Shown here in pieces: positions 39,556-63,956 of a stretch of DNA of 64,000 nt. The notes below the pieces were generated by a model, which ran no database searches, was not told where the DNA came from, and was given only the letters and a program-made list of their open reading frames with translations. Origin of the DNA: Alphaproteobacteria bacterium (GTDB lineage: Bacteria > Pseudomonadota > Alphaproteobacteria > Micropepsales > Micropepsaceae); contig WGNJ01000027.1 in assembly GCA_016124635.1 (NCBI GenBank), positions 1 to 64,000 on the forward strand. Direction: 5' to 3'. How positions within the stretch are numbered: the stretch's first letter is position 1; each line of letters opens with the position of its first letter. Made by a program: the position numbers and the translations under genes.

Positions 39556-39946
39556 TGACCGGGGAGGGACTCGAACCCTCGACCCACGGATTAACCTACC
39601 TCACCGGCTTTCGCCGGCCCGAATCGACAGAAACGCATTACGCTTCGGAAGATTCCCGGTTGAGAGTCTGGACTATACCATCACCGTTTCAGGTGTGCCG
39701 CGCCTAGTCTCTGAAGCCGATTCCCATGAATCCACGGGAACCTCGCCTGCTGATTGTCCAATCCACGCCGCTTTTCATGCCTTCGCGCTCACCGTTACCG
39801 GTCACGCTGTGGCGGACGTGGCTCTCAGGACGTTCCAGCAATTCGCGACATGCACATTCCGCGGTTGTTTTGTTCCCGCGAAAGGCTCCTGGAACGAACG
39901 TGCCGTTCCTTGAAGTCCGATGCTCTACCGACTGAGCTACCCGGTC
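39556..39946 (-). tRNA. tRNA-Lys(UUU), interrupted by a group I intron
   Basis: Joining 39946-39913 (34 nt) to 39594-39556 (39 nt) gives a perfect 73-nt tRNA. The acceptor stem GACCGGG/CCCGGTC has 7 of 7 pairs with discriminator A. The D arm is GCTC-AGTCGGTA-GAGC, the anticodon loop CTTTTAA (anticodon UUU), the variable loop GGGTC and the T arm GAGGG-TTCGAGT-CCCTC. CCA is not encoded. The exons resemble ordinary bacterial tRNA-Lys, including the T27/T43 non-pair. Without removing 318 nt the two halves cannot form a tRNA. The interruption falls between positions 34 and 35, inside the anticodon. Confidence 0.93.
39595..39912 (-). ncRNA. Group I self-splicing intron in tRNA-Lys
   Basis: 318 nt with group I hallmarks, read on the minus strand. 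The 5' exon ends in U and the intron ends in G. P1 can form between exon CUU and intron GAG with a U-G pair at the splice site, above a GGAACG/CGTTCC stem. Core elements follow in the correct order: P (AATTGCTGGAA, near 39843-39833), Q (AATCAGCAGG, near 39755), a P6-like TTCCC/GGGAA hairpin, R (TTCAGAGACTAGGCG, near 39715), a P8-like CACC/GGTG hairpin and S (TATAGTCC, near 39677). No homing endonuclease gene is inside. Insertion at 34/35 matches the position of the cyanobacterial tRNA-Leu(UAA) intron. Confidence 0.9.
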
Positions 39947-58370: not shown

Positions 58371-58496
58371 GAATCGGGCGATTAAGTGCCTGAGGGTCTT
58401 GGGTTTCCGGCAAGATAACTCTGTTCCTAATAACTTCTGTAAAAACACATCAACTCAAGTTGGCGTTTTTTCTGGTGGGGGGAGGTGAGGGGAGAG

Positions 58497-59909
58497 ATGT
58501 CACGTGAAGGCATAGCCGAAATCCTTCCGACTCGTACCGGTACCCAACAACGGTATCGTGACGAGCTCAATTTCGCGGAGTTCCCGATCGCGTCCGTGTC
58601 GGACACCATCGCCGACAACCAGAAGACGCTCGAGTTCTCCGACGAGATCTTCGATCCTTCGACCGGAAGCACGGTCACTCGAACCCTTTCCATCACGGCG
58701 GCGGACAAGTTCGGTCTTCCCACCGCACTCGACGACGAGGTTTTGCTCGGCCTCATGCAGCTCTCGTGCGAGCAGGGATTCACCGATCGCAAAGTGCACT
58801 TTTCCCGCTACGAGCTCATCAAGCTTCTCGGGTGGCGTGACGAGTCGAAGTCGTACAAGCGGATCGAGGACTCGCTCAATCGCTGGACGGGCGTGACGCT
58901 CCAGTACCGTAAAGCCTGGTGGTCGAAAGAAGAGCAGTGCTGGGTGAACGAGACGTTTCACGTCATCGACCAGGTCACCGTCTTCGACCGCGAACGGATC
59001 GCCCGTCGAAGGAAAATGGCGAAGGGCTCACCTGAGAAGGCCCTTTCGTCGTTCGTCTGGAACGAGACGGTCTTTCAGAGTTTCAAGGCCGGTTACATCA
59101 AGAGCCTCGACTTCGATTTCTTCAAGAGTCTCGATTCGGCCATCTCCAAGCGGATGTTCCGTTTCCTCGACAAGCGGTTCTATCACAAGGCCCGTTGGGA
59201 ATTCGATTTGAGGGTCTTCGCGTGCGAGCACGTGGGTCTCTCGAAGAACTATTCGAACTCAGAGCTCAAGAGAAAGCTGCTCCCGGCAGTTCGCGAACTC
59301 GAACATCGTGGGTTTCTGGAACGACTTTCGGATTCGGATCGTTTCGTGCAGGTGAGGGTAGGTGAGTGGAAGGTCGTGTTCGTGAAGGCCGGCAAGCGCG
59401 TCATGAACCTGCCGCGTGAAGAAGACGATTCTCTGGTTCGTGAACTGACGGCCCGGGGCATCACCGAACGAAGCGCCAGGAAGCTCGTTTCGCAGTATGA
59501 GCGTCCGCGAATCGAGGAGAAGCTCAAACTCTTCGATGCGCTCCGAACGCGGGGAGGCGAGGGCGGCATTCGGAATCGAGCCGGGTGGCTCTACGCGGCG
59601 ATCGTTCACGATTACTCGGATGGCGAAAAGACGAATGTCGTTTCGAAGCCGATCGTCGCCAAACCGGCAGCGAAGAGCCAAGCCGCCAAAACGGAAGAGA
59701 AGCTTCCTGAAGTCGAGGCCTTCGATCGTTACTGGGAGAGTCTGGACGAAGCGGCTCGCGATTCTTTCGAGCGGGAGGCGTTCGCTGCCGCCCCGATGTT
59801 CCTTCAGAAGCAGTACCTGGAAGGTGTCGACCTGAAGGGCTCCCTCTGGAAGGTGACTCGCCGACGAATCCTGGTCGGCCATTTCGCGGCGACCGTCGCG
59901 AAAGCCTGA
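58497..59909 (+). CDS. repA: Replication initiator protein, RepA/RPA family
   Basis: A 470-residue plasmid initiator-like protein. The conserved block runs from about residue 85 (LMQLSCEQGFTDRKVHFSR, then YKRIEDSLNRWTGVTLQYRK) through FVWNETVFQSFKAGYIKSLD and SKRMFRFLDKRFYHKARWEF, the pattern of the RPA (replication initiator protein A) family. A hydrophilic linker and a C-terminal helical part follow. The ATG at 58497 is chosen, with a purine-rich GGAGGTGAGGGGAGAG directly upstream; an in-frame GTG at 58485 is less likely. It probably binds the iterons at 58124-58370. Confidence 0.88.
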   Translation: MSREGIAEILPTRTGTQQRYRDELNFAEFPIASVSDTIADNQKTLEFSDEIFDPSTGSTVTRTLSITAADKFGLPTALDDEVLLGLMQLSCEQGFTDRKVHFSRYELIKLLGWRDESKSYKRIEDSLNRWTGVTLQYRKAWWSKEEQCWVNETFHVIDQVTVFDRERIARRRKMAKGSPEKALSSFVWNETVFQSFKAGYIKSLDFDFFKSLDSAISKRMFRFLDKRFYHKARWEFDLRVFACEHVGLSKNYSNSELKRKLLPAVRELEHRGFLERLSDSDRFVQVRVGEWKVVFVKAGKRVMNLPREEDDSLVRELTARGITERSARKLVSQYERPRIEEKLKLFDALRTRGGEGGIRNRAGWLYAAIVHDYSDGEKTNVVSKPIVAKPAAKSQAAKTEEKLPEVEAFDRYWESLDEAARDSFEREAFAAAPMFLQKQYLEGVDLKGSLWKVTRRRILVGHFAATVAKA

Positions 59910-61430: not shown

Positions 61431-63956
61431 TTATGCGGCGATCGAAGGACCGAGCGGCCGAGGTGAGGGCGTACGATCGGTGATTTCCTGAGCGAGCGTC
61501 TTTTGTCGCTCCCGGCCGAGTGCCCTGACCAGTTCCTTTAGCTCCAGCCCAGCGGTCTCCCTATCGCAGAAGATGTGAGTGCCCTTTTGACTGCGGGACG
61601 CCTGCACGTAGCCCATGTGAAGATCGGTGAGCGGTCCTCCCATCAGCACGTGGACGAACGGAATGCTCGCCCCCTGGGCCTTGTGGGTCGTGCTGCCGTA
61701 ACCCAGTCGGAGATTTTTGGATGAGTATCGTTTGAGGCTTACGGCAATCTCCCGTTCGCCCTGGTCGAGCCGGACGGTGAGTCGTTCCCGCTTCGGGTCG
61801 ACGGAGAGAACCGTGCCGGTATCGGAGTTGAGCACCCCGAGTTCGCGGGAGTTCTTCTGGAACTGGATGCGGTCTCCGGGGTGAAAGTCGTAGCCGTTCA
61901 CGTGCAACACGGTATTGGCGTCGACGTGGCCTGAGCGGATACGTTCGGCTTGGGCTTTCAGATTCAGCTCTTTCACTTCGCTGTTGAGGCTCGCCAGCAT
62001 GAAGACGTTTTCGGGTTGGGCGATACCGCCGTCTGCTTTCCATTGATCGATCAGTTGCGAGATCGCTTGCGGCCGATTATTCGCCAGGTGAAGTCGATCG
62101 TGCTGGACGTAAGCCGCGAGCGCTTCGCTCGAGCGGCCTCGTTCGAAGTCTCTGACGGCTTCTCTAGCCCAGAGCTCCTCTTGTCGACGGATGTTGTCGA
62201 GTCGGACTTCCCCCAGGATCTCCGACAGATACTTGAAAGGCCCGCCTGCCGTGATGGGCTGAAGCTGTTTCGAGTCACCGACGAGGATGATACGGGCACC
62301 GGGAGCGTTGGCGACGTGCTCGACGAGGCGAGCGATCTGCTTGGTGCCGACCATGCCGGCTTCGTCCACCACGATGACCGAATGGGCATGGAGCCTAACG
62401 GAATCGGCGTCGAGAAGGCGTAAGAGTCGGTCGATCGTTTGAGATTCGATGCCGGTGCCCTCTTGGAGCCGTTTCGCTGCCGCTGCGGCGACGGCACATC
62501 CCCAAACGTCCCGCCCTTCGTTTCTCCAGACGTCATGGCAGGCTTTGAGCGTGTAGGTTTTGCCGGTTCCCGCGAGACCGCTCATCAGTCGGATGCCGGG
62601 TCCTGAGCAGAGCCACTCGACGGCCCGCTTCTGTTCGTCGTCCAGAGTTCTTCCCGGTGCGTGCACGGCTTCTCGGATGATGTCATGGCCTGTACCGCTC
62701 TGGGGGCCACGAACGATCCGTTCGACGTGTCTCAAGAGCTGCTGCTCCAGCCGCTGGACTTCCGGCGTCGTGTAGCGGACTTCGGTGCGGTCGACGTAAC
62801 GGTTGGAATGGCTGTTCCTGCCTTCGGTGGTGAGGATGCCCAGGCGAATGAGGTCGGGGCCGTCGAGTTCCCGTTTGACGAGCTTTCGGATCTCGTCGCT
62901 CGAAAGTCGGCCCACGGCCAGTTCGGCGACCGTCTTCAAGAGTTCCGCTTCGTTCCAGTGGGCGTGCTGCTCGGAGAGTTTCGAAAGGGCTTCACGGAAG
63001 ATCGAACGCTTGGTGGCTTCGAGCTCCTCCGGCATGAGTCTCCGGTAGTCGTATCTCAAGCTTTGCAAGATTTCGGCGTCGATTCCGAAGCTTTTGCCCA
63101 CTTCCTTCCATTCGGCCAGAAGCTCCTGGCGGGGCTTTTCGGAATCTTTGCGGCGGCGGGTTTCTTTCGCGATGAGCTCGGCGTAGCGGGGGGAAGCTGC
63201 GTCGAGGCCTCCGGCCCGGAGGGTGAGTTCCCGTTCGATTTCGGCTCTTCGTTTGGAGAATTCCTCGACGAGTGCGAGCGGGATGTCGGCGAGCTCGAAT
63301 CCGAGGCTCGCGCCCACTTGCCGCTGTTCGACCATGAAACCCAGTTCCTGCAGACCGCGAGCGAGCGCTGCCCGGTAGATGGCACCGGCCGACATTTTCC
63401 AGTGATAGAGGTGGGTGGAATCGATGGCGGTGATGCGGCCGTCCGGATGGACCGTGAGATTGATGCAGAGGGCGTGCGTATGGAGCTGCGGGTCCGATGC
63501 CCGGCTCGTGCCATGCTCGAACAGAGCGAAGAGGAGAGGGGACTTCACCAGTTCCTGACCCTGCTTGCCGACACGTGCGAATCCGGCCTGGGCTTCGATG
63601 AAGTCCAGGGCTTCCCGCACAGCGTAGAGGTGCTGAACTTCGATGGCCTTCCTGAGTGCGGTGTCGGCCATGGCCCAGGCGACGGAGACCGATTTGGGGC
63701 AGCTGAAGGTGAGATCGTGGCCGGGATTTCGGTGCGGGGTTCCGGCGTTGCGTACGAGAGGCCGCTGCGTTTCGTGATGGTAGCCCGCACAGAGCCGTTC
63801 GACGTGATGTCGCTCGGCGATGCCGGATAGTCCGAATTCTTGAGCGGCGGTGCCGTACCAGAGAGGGACCGGTTCTCCTCCTTCGGCGTAGTAGTTGATG
63901 TTGGCCAGCTCCAGGTAGTAGCCGGGCCCTTGGGTAAGGGATGCGACGGATAACAT
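61431..63956 (-). CDS. MobF-type relaxase-helicase (TrwC/TraA-like)
   Basis: An 841-residue conjugative relaxase that would nick at oriT and unwind the transferred strand. The N-terminal relaxase domain (about 1-300) has Tyr pairs in GPGYYLELANINYYAEGGEP and the three-His motif in HGTSRASDPQLHTHALCIN. The C-terminal RecD-like helicase (about 435-820) has Walker A GLAGTGKT near 458-465, VIVVDEAGMVG (Walker B) and ILVGDSKQLQPI. It is shorter than TrwC (966), mostly through a shorter C-terminus. The start codon is near the window edge; oriT, usually upstream, would be beyond 64000. Confidence 0.93.
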   Translation of the reverse strand: MLSVASLTQGPGYYLELANINYYAEGGEPVPLWYGTAAQEFGLSGIAERHHVERLCAGYHHETQRPLVRNAGTPHRNPGHDLTFSCPKSVSVAWAMADTALRKAIEVQHLYAVREALDFIEAQAGFARVGKQGQELVKSPLLFALFEHGTSRASDPQLHTHALCINLTVHPDGRITAIDSTHLYHWKMSAGAIYRAALARGLQELGFMVEQRQVGASLGFELADIPLALVEEFSKRRAEIERELTLRAGGLDAASPRYAELIAKETRRRKDSEKPRQELLAEWKEVGKSFGIDAEILQSLRYDYRRLMPEELEATKRSIFREALSKLSEQHAHWNEAELLKTVAELAVGRLSSDEIRKLVKRELDGPDLIRLGILTTEGRNSHSNRYVDRTEVRYTTPEVQRLEQQLLRHVERIVRGPQSGTGHDIIREAVHAPGRTLDDEQKRAVEWLCSGPGIRLMSGLAGTGKTYTLKACHDVWRNEGRDVWGCAVAAAAAKRLQEGTGIESQTIDRLLRLLDADSVRLHAHSVIVVDEAGMVGTKQIARLVEHVANAPGARIILVGDSKQLQPITAGGPFKYLSEILGEVRLDNIRRQEELWAREAVRDFERGRSSEALAAYVQHDRLHLANNRPQAISQLIDQWKADGGIAQPENVFMLASLNSEVKELNLKAQAERIRSGHVDANTVLHVNGYDFHPGDRIQFQKNSRELGVLNSDTGTVLSVDPKRERLTVRLDQGEREIAVSLKRYSSKNLRLGYGSTTHKAQGASIPFVHVLMGGPLTDLHMGYVQASRSQKGTHIFCDRETAGLELKELVRALGRERQKTLAQEITDRTPSPRPLGPSIAA

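What the first reader, a model, noticed from the sequence alone, without database searches (positions are those of the whole stretch)
39556..39946. tRNA-Lys(UUU) split inside its anticodon by a 318-nt group I intron
Seen: the two halves at 39946-39913 and 39594-39556 join into a perfect 73-nt tRNA-Lys, and the 318 nt between carry P, Q, R and S core sequences in order, a U at the 5' splice site and a terminal G. Established: bacterial tRNA group I introns are best known from tRNA-Leu(UAA), tRNA-Arg(CCU), tRNA-Ile(CAU) and initiator tRNA. I do not know of a described tRNA-Lys(UUU) case in planctomycetes. Inference: if this is the only tRNA-Lys(UUU) gene, splicing is essential for growth. The 34/35 position equals that of the cyanobacterial tRNA-Leu intron, raising a question of intron transfer between tRNAs that share a CUU 5' exon end.
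Basis: partly seen in the sequence, partly recalled or inferred. Interest (0 to 1): 0.9.

Follow-up and report, generated by a model that had tools for sequence, protein, structure and literature searches.

The report
Group I intron splitting planctomycete tRNA-Lys
A planctomycete tRNA gene that reads lysine AAA codons is cut inside its anticodon by a ribozyme-type intron that most sequenced members of the same bacterial order also carry, apparently inherited from a common ancestor, so these bacteria probably need RNA splicing to make a basic part of their translation machinery.

Summary
On the minus strand, 39946-39913 and 39594-39556 join into a 73-nt tRNA-Lys(UUU). The 318 nt between fold as a group I intron (RF00028 E 5.7e-8; 36.9 bits, below the curated cut-off of 50). 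In 37 homologous pre-tRNAs the proposed fold is 94.2% paired (31.8-41.1% when slid), 35 pairs changing on both sides; U34.G59 and the terminal G never vary. The contig looks mis-binned: its assembly appears alphaproteobacterial, but the window's DNA polymerase I belongs with the order of Tautonia (Isosphaerales, Planctomycetota). In that order 36 of 45 held genomes carry the intron, 4 have an uninterrupted gene at the exact site, and none was found in 5. Intron and host distances correlate (Mantel r 0.81, n = 30), as vertical inheritance predicts. No other tRNA-Lys(UUU) was found in Tautonia sociabilis. Five further planctomycete genomes share the site. Actinobacterial and alphaproteobacterial introns there belong to another group I lineage; one origin for all is rejected (p-AU 0.0165, small alignment). 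The intron has a P5a/P5b extension and groups with planctomycete 23S rRNA introns, not tRNA-Leu introns. Splicing is inferred, not shown. My searches of openly licensed papers found no planctomycete tRNA intron.

The parts
39913..39946 (-). 5' exon of tRNA-Lys(UUU), 34 nt, ending ...GGACUU
   Evidence: nearly identical in 37 pre-tRNAs
39595..39912 (-). 318-nt group I intron
   Evidence: RF00028 E 5.7e-8; R1 208.2 bits, though the window is one of the six sequences R1 was built from; covariation
39556..39594 (-). 3' exon of tRNA-Lys(UUU), 39 nt, UUAAUCCG...; CCA not encoded
39886..39888 (-). internal guide: G59 A60 G61 pair with U34, U33, C32 of the 5' exon (P1, U.G at the splice site)
   Evidence: 37 of 37 invariant
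39857..39883 (-). P2 stem-loop
   Evidence: 81.3% of cells paired; two outer pairs fail in 28 and 21 of 37
39844..39850 (-). P3 5' strand (3' strand 39696-39702)
   Evidence: the last pair as drawn holds in only 3 of 37
39836..39841 (-). P4 5' strand (3' strand 39747-39752)
   Evidence: the first pair as drawn fails in 19 of 37, the other five never vary
39756..39831 (-). P5 with P5a/P5b extension: GNRA loop on P5b in 36 of 37, and an A-rich bulge (GAAAAG type)
39716..39746 (-). P6/P6a
   Evidence: 91.6% of cells paired; one P6a pair fails in 22 of 37
39671..39709 (-). P7 (39705-39709 with 39671-39675, crossing P3) around P8 (39682-39695)
   Evidence: P7 100% paired in 37, its last pair A-U in 27 and C-G in 10
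39600..39664 (-). P9 region with P9b hairpin (39604-39617); loop GAAA in 34 and GAGA in 3 of 37
39595..39595 (-). terminal intron G (omega G)
   Evidence: invariant in 37

Best explanation
This is a self-splicing-type group I intron in the tRNA-Lys(UUU) gene of a planctomycete related to Isosphaerales. The pre-tRNA folds so that the two anticodon-stem strands bring the exons together. The last bases of the 5' exon (CUU) pair with the guide GAG, and U34.G59 marks the 5' splice site. A guanosine bound in P7 attacks after U34, the freed U34 attacks after the terminal G, and the exons join to give tRNA-Lys(UUU). Shown by sequence: exons, boundaries, conserved fold, an exact natural empty site, order-wide distribution and host-like divergence. 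Inferred: catalysis, guanosine dependence, splicing in the cell, and the need for splicing for growth. No homing endonuclease frame fits in the intron; it behaves as a vertically inherited resident that a minority of relatives lack.
For: RF00028 match, E 5.7e-8. 37 pre-tRNAs: 94.2% of cells paired, 35 pairs with double changes; slid controls 31.8-41.1% and 8-17 pairs; shuffles 88.4% and 19.4 pairs, none of 500 reaching the observed values. U34.G59 and terminal G invariant in 37 of 37. All 37 spliced in silico give Lys(ttt). Four uninterrupted alleles at the exact site. In the order of Tautonia 36 of 45 genomes match R1 at 154.9-209.4 bits; among the 327 genomes sampled from the class none outside those 36 scores above 76.2. 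Intron and DNA polymerase I distances: Mantel r 0.81, p 0.0002, n = 30. No intact Lys(UUU) among 66 distinct tRNA sequences of Tautonia sociabilis plus one found later, or among 42 of G779.
Against: The Rfam score is under the gathering score (36.9 against 50), and the class-wide RF00028 scan with stricter filters missed the window. No RNA data and no splicing test. P10 is short: U35 can pair with base 58 in 37 of 37 rows (35 as U.G), U36 with base 57 in 28, a third pair in 17. The three P9 pairs fail in 6, 7 and 9 of 37 rows, P2 is only 81.3% paired, and single pairs at the ends of P3 and P4 fail in most or half of the rows. No promoter was found by the simple scan. A first Mantel run gave r 0.14 because wrong reading frames were taken for DNA polymerase I; one search corrected this. 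Of 45 order genomes, 4 lack the intron and no gene was found in 5.
Confidence: 0.92

Rival explanations
1. The intron belongs to the IC3-type bacterial tRNA introns and reached tRNA-Lys from tRNA-Leu(UAA), which shares the CUU exon end and the 34/35 position.
For: Same exon end and position as the alphaproteobacterial tRNA-Leu(UAA) introns; Lys introns from Nesterenkonia, Sphingomonadales and G046 sit in the Leu-containing group, as does a planctomycete tRNA(CAU) intron, so that lineage does reach planctomycetes.
Against: The planctomycete Lys introns separate from these (100/99 branch) and group with 23S rRNA introns; one clade of all Lys 34/35 introns is rejected, p-AU 0.0165; the window intron has a P5a/P5b extension, which PMC11835236 describes as absent from IC3 (passages seen). 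Limits: 105 columns, an alignment fitted to a model of the planctomycete introns, an unsettled bootstrap, and 9 of 67 sources without a match and so not in the tree.
Confidence: 0.08
2. The boundary lies one base earlier and the product is tRNA-Asn(GUU).
For: ARAGORN in intron mode prefers it for the window.
Against: The intron would then end in C, A or T in 22 of 37 homologues; the splice-site pair would be U33-A60 instead of the invariant U34.G59; empty alleles read GGACTT+TTAATCC; G779 has a separate intact Asn(GUU) and no intact Lys(UUU).
Confidence: 0.02
3. The split gene is a remnant left by an integrated element and is not expressed.
For: Tyrosine integrase sequence lies beside the gene in several genomes; copies of the 3' half without a 5' half exist in Rhizobium and other loci.
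Against: Both halves are intact with a covarying intron in 37 sequences; no second copy of the 5' half was found except G1249's, itself interrupted.
Confidence: 0.02
4. The intron is a group I intron but is removed only with a protein helper rather than by itself.
For: Some group I introns need protein cofactors (PMC3984707 and PMC7717549, passages seen).
Against: The core elements and GNRA-type loops on P5b and P9b are kept; PMC7717549 reports that the Bartonella tRNA-Arg intron self-splices in vitro (passages).
Confidence: 0.25

Closest known systems
[quoted passage not shown]
   Same: Group I intron in the anticodon loop after CUU, largely vertical inheritance (recalled)
   Different: Different tRNA and phylum, P5a/P5b extension here, and no grouping with alphaproteobacterial Leu(UAA) introns; the cyanobacterial sequences themselves were not compared
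tRNA-Arg(CCU) intron of alphaproteobacteria (e.g. BbgpI, PMC7717549)
   Same: Group I intron hidden in a tRNA gene that a standard scanner missed; BbgpI reported to splice in vivo and self-splice in vitro (passages)
   Different: Position 37/38 in the Arg genes seen here; 'sporadic distribution' per the title of a cited paper; the two Arg introns that could be aligned fall in the other clade
Azoarcus-like introns in tRNA-Lys(UUU) of Nesterenkonia alba, a Sphingomonadales MAG and Baikal-deep-G43
   Same: Same tRNA, same 34/35 site, same GAG guide by eye
   Different: 217-226 nt, no P5 extension by inspection, other side of the deepest branch; the name Azoarcus-like rests on recall
Planctomycete 23S rRNA group I introns (L302-L309)
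   Same: In the same clade as the planctomycete Lys introns; R1 scores of 45-65 bits, overlapping at the low end with other tRNA introns
   Different: Different host gene; two carry what looks by eye like a LAGLIDADG reading frame

Membership tests
Group I intron (RF00028) | P, Q, R, S core with P3-P8 including the P3/P7 crossing | tested here: met
   RF00028 alignment; covariation including P7
Group I intron (RF00028) | U.G pair at the 5' splice site and G at the intron end | tested here: met
   37 of 37
Group I intron (RF00028) | Rfam curated score cut-off of 50 bits | tested here: not met
   36.9 bits, E 5.7e-8. This is a curator's threshold rather than a biochemical feature; several alphaproteobacterial Leu and Arg introns also score below it
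Group I intron (RF00028) | P10 between guide and 3' exon | tested here: inconclusive
   One pair possible in 37 of 37 rows, two in 28, three in 17
Group I intron (RF00028) | Guanosine-initiated self-splicing | not testable with these tools
   needs RNA
Subgroup IC3 (usual bacterial tRNA introns) | No P5a-d extension | tested here: not met
   P5a/P5b helices 90.8-100% paired, 13 of 16 pairs with a change on both sides; absence in IC3 from passages of PMC11835236
Subgroup IC3 (usual bacterial tRNA introns) | Groups with alphaproteobacterial tRNA introns | tested here: not met
   100/99 branch apart from the 25 rows on that side; that those are IC3 rests on recall
tRNA-Lys(UUU) | Cloverleaf with UUU anticodon after splicing | tested here: met
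Mobile intron with homing endonuclease gene | Endonuclease reading frame in the intron | tested here: not met
   Longest stop-free stretch 105 codons on the opposite strand and 68 on the sense strand; no family search of these was run

The most novel reading that the evidence does not exclude
In the planctomycete order Isosphaerales an essential tRNA has depended on a ribozyme since near the order's origin, and this intron stems from the rRNA-intron lineage of planctomycetes. The same bond of tRNA-Lys(UUU) was invaded independently by a second, IC3-type lineage in Actinobacteria and Alphaproteobacteria, which makes the 34/35 site of CUU-ending anticodon arms a convergent target for unrelated group I introns.
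Probability: 0.5. Interest if true: 0.66.

Novelty: new variant of a known kind. Interest (0 to 1): 0.57.

Why it matters
Bacterial tRNA introns are usually described in a few tRNAs of cyanobacteria and proteobacteria (PMC4033280, passages), as small IC3 elements (recalled). Here a larger intron with a P5 extension sits in what looks like the only tRNA for AAA codons across most of a bacterial order, with natural intron-free alleles in four relatives. That gives a clean system for asking why an intron persists in an essential gene, how exact loss occurs, and whether unrelated introns converge on one tRNA site. It also shows that a common tRNA finder without intron mode misses an essential tRNA in these genomes.

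Tried and rejected
The Asn(GUU) boundary was rejected. An att-site remnant was rejected as the explanation, although integrases do flank the site. The own-genome tRNA count (no intact Lys) was set aside once the contig proved to be mis-binned. The thought that intron-free alleles are those with an adjacent integrase was dropped: with the L359 integrase as query, 6 intron-bearing loci also show it (L265, L270, L279, L280, L294, L297), against 3 of 4 intron-free ones, two of them weakly; only flanks inside the fetched loci, of unequal length, were searched.

The loose 3'-half pattern over the phylum of G779 matched 96 of 392 genomes, mostly ordinary Lys(CUU), Lys(UUU) and Asn genes, with an intron-like prefix only in G779. 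It excludes the GAGCCC variant common in the order, so the R1 model replaced it. The same idea over the phylum of G000 matched 2 of 398 genomes: the window and a Rhizobium-like copy. The first Mantel test (r 0.14) used wrong reading frames in some rows and was replaced. Of the 40 contigs matched, 10 carry a real split gene, L148 is cut off at the contig end, and the rest have no 5' half within 3 kb upstream, or one at most 54 nt away that was not pursued; of the 10 viral loci none is a split gene. In one search the unconstrained tree split the Isosphaerales introns in two; a tree holding them together is no worse (p-AU 0.78).

On recheck I found that two tRNA matches of Tautonia had not been fetched. 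One is tRNA-Glu(ttc), the other a further intron-split tRNA that is not Lys.

Literature: searches listed no planctomycete tRNA intron; I saw listings and, for the papers named, passages. PMC5733544 (passages) claims group I introns of 22-49 nt in cyanobacterial Arg, Gly and Lys(CTT) genes; these are too short for a group I core in my judgement. Most subscription papers are not in that library.

Full report
Observation. On the minus strand the window reads a 34-nt 5' tRNA half (39946-39913), 318 nt, then a 39-nt 3' half (39594-39556). Joined, ARAGORN calls tRNA-Lys(ttt). The 318 nt match RF00028 with E 5.7e-8 and 36.9 bits, below its gathering score of 50, and none of 100 shuffles folds as well (z -3.25). 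At lower sensitivity the match is lost.

Which organism. The assembly holding the window (G000) looks alphaproteobacterial. A same-class genome, G046, carries a contig of the same length (10,355 bases) as SHVR01000078.1, titled Alphaproteobacteria, with an identical intron-bearing gene. Another same-class genome, G449, carries a 3'-half copy of the kind seen in Rhizobium loci. G000 has its own DNA polymerase I on contig C23. The window's polymerase is 44% identical to that one, but 76% to G779 and 63% to Tautonia sociabilis and two other genomes titled planctomycete. The window also encodes a PSCyt2/PSD1 protein beside the tRNA, a domain pair I recall as typical of planctomycetes. I conclude that the contig is planctomycete and mis-binned. 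The absence of an intact tRNA-Lys elsewhere in G000 therefore says nothing about the window's organism.

Relatives. A pattern for a 3' half preceded by a G matched 40 contigs of a collection of 84,980 species genomes. Ten have a 5' half 218-337 nt upstream, with introns of 217-336 nt: Isosphaeraceae, Tautonia sociabilis, Gemmataceae, Planctomycetaceae, two MAGs titled Kuenenia, Poribacteria, Nesterenkonia alba, Sphingomonadales and Baikal-deep-G43. A covariance model (R1) of P3-P8 was built from the window and five of them. Over 327 genomes sampled from the class of Tautonia, 50 match at E<=0.001. Of these, 36 score 154.9-209.4 bits; the next scores 76.2. The 36 are the same 36 found among all 45 held genomes of the tool's order of Tautonia (NCBI places Tautonia in Isosphaerales). 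I read 35 of the 36 in full: 34 genomes and Tautonia. In each, tRNA-Lys(UUU) is split at 34/35, with introns of 281-338 nt. The 36th (G1257) is cut off at a contig end but has the 5' half. Five more genomes, scoring 68-76 bits, one of them titled Gemmataceae, have a 223-280 nt intron at the same place. The remaining nine are seven genomes with introns in 23S rRNA genes and two with a tRNA(CAU) intron.

Structure. In a plain MAFFT alignment of 37 pre-tRNAs the proposed 93 pairs are 94.2% paired, with 35 pairs changed on both sides; shuffles give 88.4% and 19.4, slid versions 31.8-41.1% and 8-17. The structure was drawn from the window and the first six homologues, which favours it over slid versions. 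P7 is fully paired and its last pair switches between A-U (27) and C-G (10). P5a/P5b has 13 of 16 pairs with double changes. The P5b loop is GNRA in 36 of 37 and the P9b loop is GAAA or GAGA in 37 of 37. The weak spots are P2 (81.3%), P9 (80.2%) and end pairs of P3 and P4. The splice-site pairs U34.G59, U33-A60 and C32-G61 and the terminal G are invariant. P10 can form one pair in 37 rows, two in 28, three in 17.

Boundary. ARAGORN alone would give Asn(GUU) by sliding one base. That would end the intron in C, A or T in 22 of 37 homologues. Four genomes of the order carry an uninterrupted gene with GGACTT directly followed by TTAATCC, which fixes the product as Lys(UUU).

Is it the only copy? 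With up to 3 mismatches the 5' half occurs in 40 of 45 order genomes: once in 39 and twice in G1249, where both copies are interrupted. Five genomes show none; one of them, G1189, also lacks a DNA polymerase I match, so incomplete assembly is likely at least there. Tautonia sociabilis has 66 distinct tRNA sequences, two of them Lys(CUU) (one in a tRNA array), plus Glu(ttc) found on recheck, and no intact Lys(UUU). G779 has 42, one of them Lys(CUU), and no intact Lys(UUU); there 150 of 265 first-look candidates were scored. A CUU anticodon is not expected to read AAA (established knowledge), so splicing is probably essential in these relatives.

History. The 36 intron-bearing genomes of the order have 58-79% DNA polymerase I identity to the window. 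Of 20 R1-negative genomes of the class, 19 gave a match, at 44-54%; the five lower-scoring Lys genomes gave 52-55% (best stretch each). The four intron-free genomes of the order were not in that test. Among 30 sequences with both genes, intron and polymerase distances correlate (r 0.81, p 0.0002; 20 of 30 share the nearest neighbour). This is what vertical inheritance predicts.

Intron tree. Of 67 sources given, 58 aligned to R1; the nine dropped are all from the alphaproteobacterial scan and include Leu and Arg introns. On 105 columns, the planctomycete Lys, Poribacteria Lys and planctomycete 23S introns (33 rows) separate from 25 rows: alphaproteobacterial Leu, Arg and Lys introns, Nesterenkonia Lys, and one planctomycete tRNA(CAU) intron (100/99). 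Holding all Lys 34/35 introns together is rejected (p-AU 0.0165); one clade of the planctomycete and Poribacteria Lys introns is not (p-AU 0.60), nor one clade of the Isosphaerales introns (0.78), although the free tree split them. The alignment was fitted to a model of the Isosphaerales introns, has few columns, and the bootstrap had not settled. I therefore take two colonisations of the site as likely and the rRNA-lineage origin as a lead.

Mechanism. Inferred from anatomy: the exons are held by the anticodon stem (a requirement named in the title of the Anabaena paper in the reference list seen), the guide GAG selects U34, guanosine attacks, and the exons join. Nothing here tests catalysis. 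Introns in tRNA-Arg(CCU) are reported to splice in vivo and in vitro (PMC7717549, passages).

Novelty. tRNA group I introns in bacteria are known. I found no report of a planctomycete tRNA intron in the searches; only openly licensed papers were covered. tRNAscan-SE 2.0's authors note 36 genomes whose fMet or Ile2 gene is missed because of group I introns (passages). The new points are the isotype and phylum, the P5-extended architecture, order-wide retention, natural empty alleles, and evidence for a second independent invasion of the same site.

Noticed in passing
window 1-64000: The contig looks like planctomycete DNA inside an alphaproteobacterial assembly; it also carries a TrwC relaxase (61431-63956 -) and an RPA-type replication initiator (58485-59909 +), which suggests a plasmid or integrated element.
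   Followed up: partly
L374 151-496 (Tautonia sociabilis, G777 contig C11): A second intron-split tRNA in Tautonia: an RF00028 match of 52.0 bits (above the cut-off) between two halves that by eye make a tRNA with a CAU anticodon; exact boundaries not settled.
   Followed up: partly
L086, L092, L094, L104 (alphaproteobacterial genomes): Read by hand, these introns split tRNA-Lys(CUU) or tRNA-Lys(UUU) at 35/36, although ARAGORN names other tRNAs. In that class 30 of 385 genomes match RF00028, and 27 of 30 loci examined give an intron-split tRNA call.
   Followed up: partly
L302-L309: Group I introns in planctomycete 23S rRNA genes at more than one site; L308 and L309 seem by eye to encode a LAGLIDADG-like protein.
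   Followed up: partly
L310, L311: A 248-nt intron in a planctomycete tRNA with a CAU anticodon, with the same exons and intron ends in two genomes; L310 sits on the alphaproteobacterial side of the intron tree.
   Followed up: partly
L225 1983-4733 (Tautonia sociabilis contig C100): An array of 23 tRNA genes on one strand within 2.8 kb, several of them scoring low. It may belong to a mobile element.
   Followed up: no
L265, L270, L279, L280, L294, L297, L357-L359: Tyrosine integrase sequence lies beside tRNA-Lys(UUU), with or without the intron, so the gene may be an integration hot spot.
   Followed up: partly
L082: An RF00028 match of 73.8 bits inside what looks by eye like a protein-coding gene of an alphaproteobacterial genome.
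   Followed up: no
L139, L144, L148: Records titled Candidatus Kuenenia stuttgartiensis hold introns of the Isosphaerales type; G779 (from L139) and a genome whose match has the L144 coordinates fall in the order of Tautonia, so the titles look wrong.
   Followed up: partly
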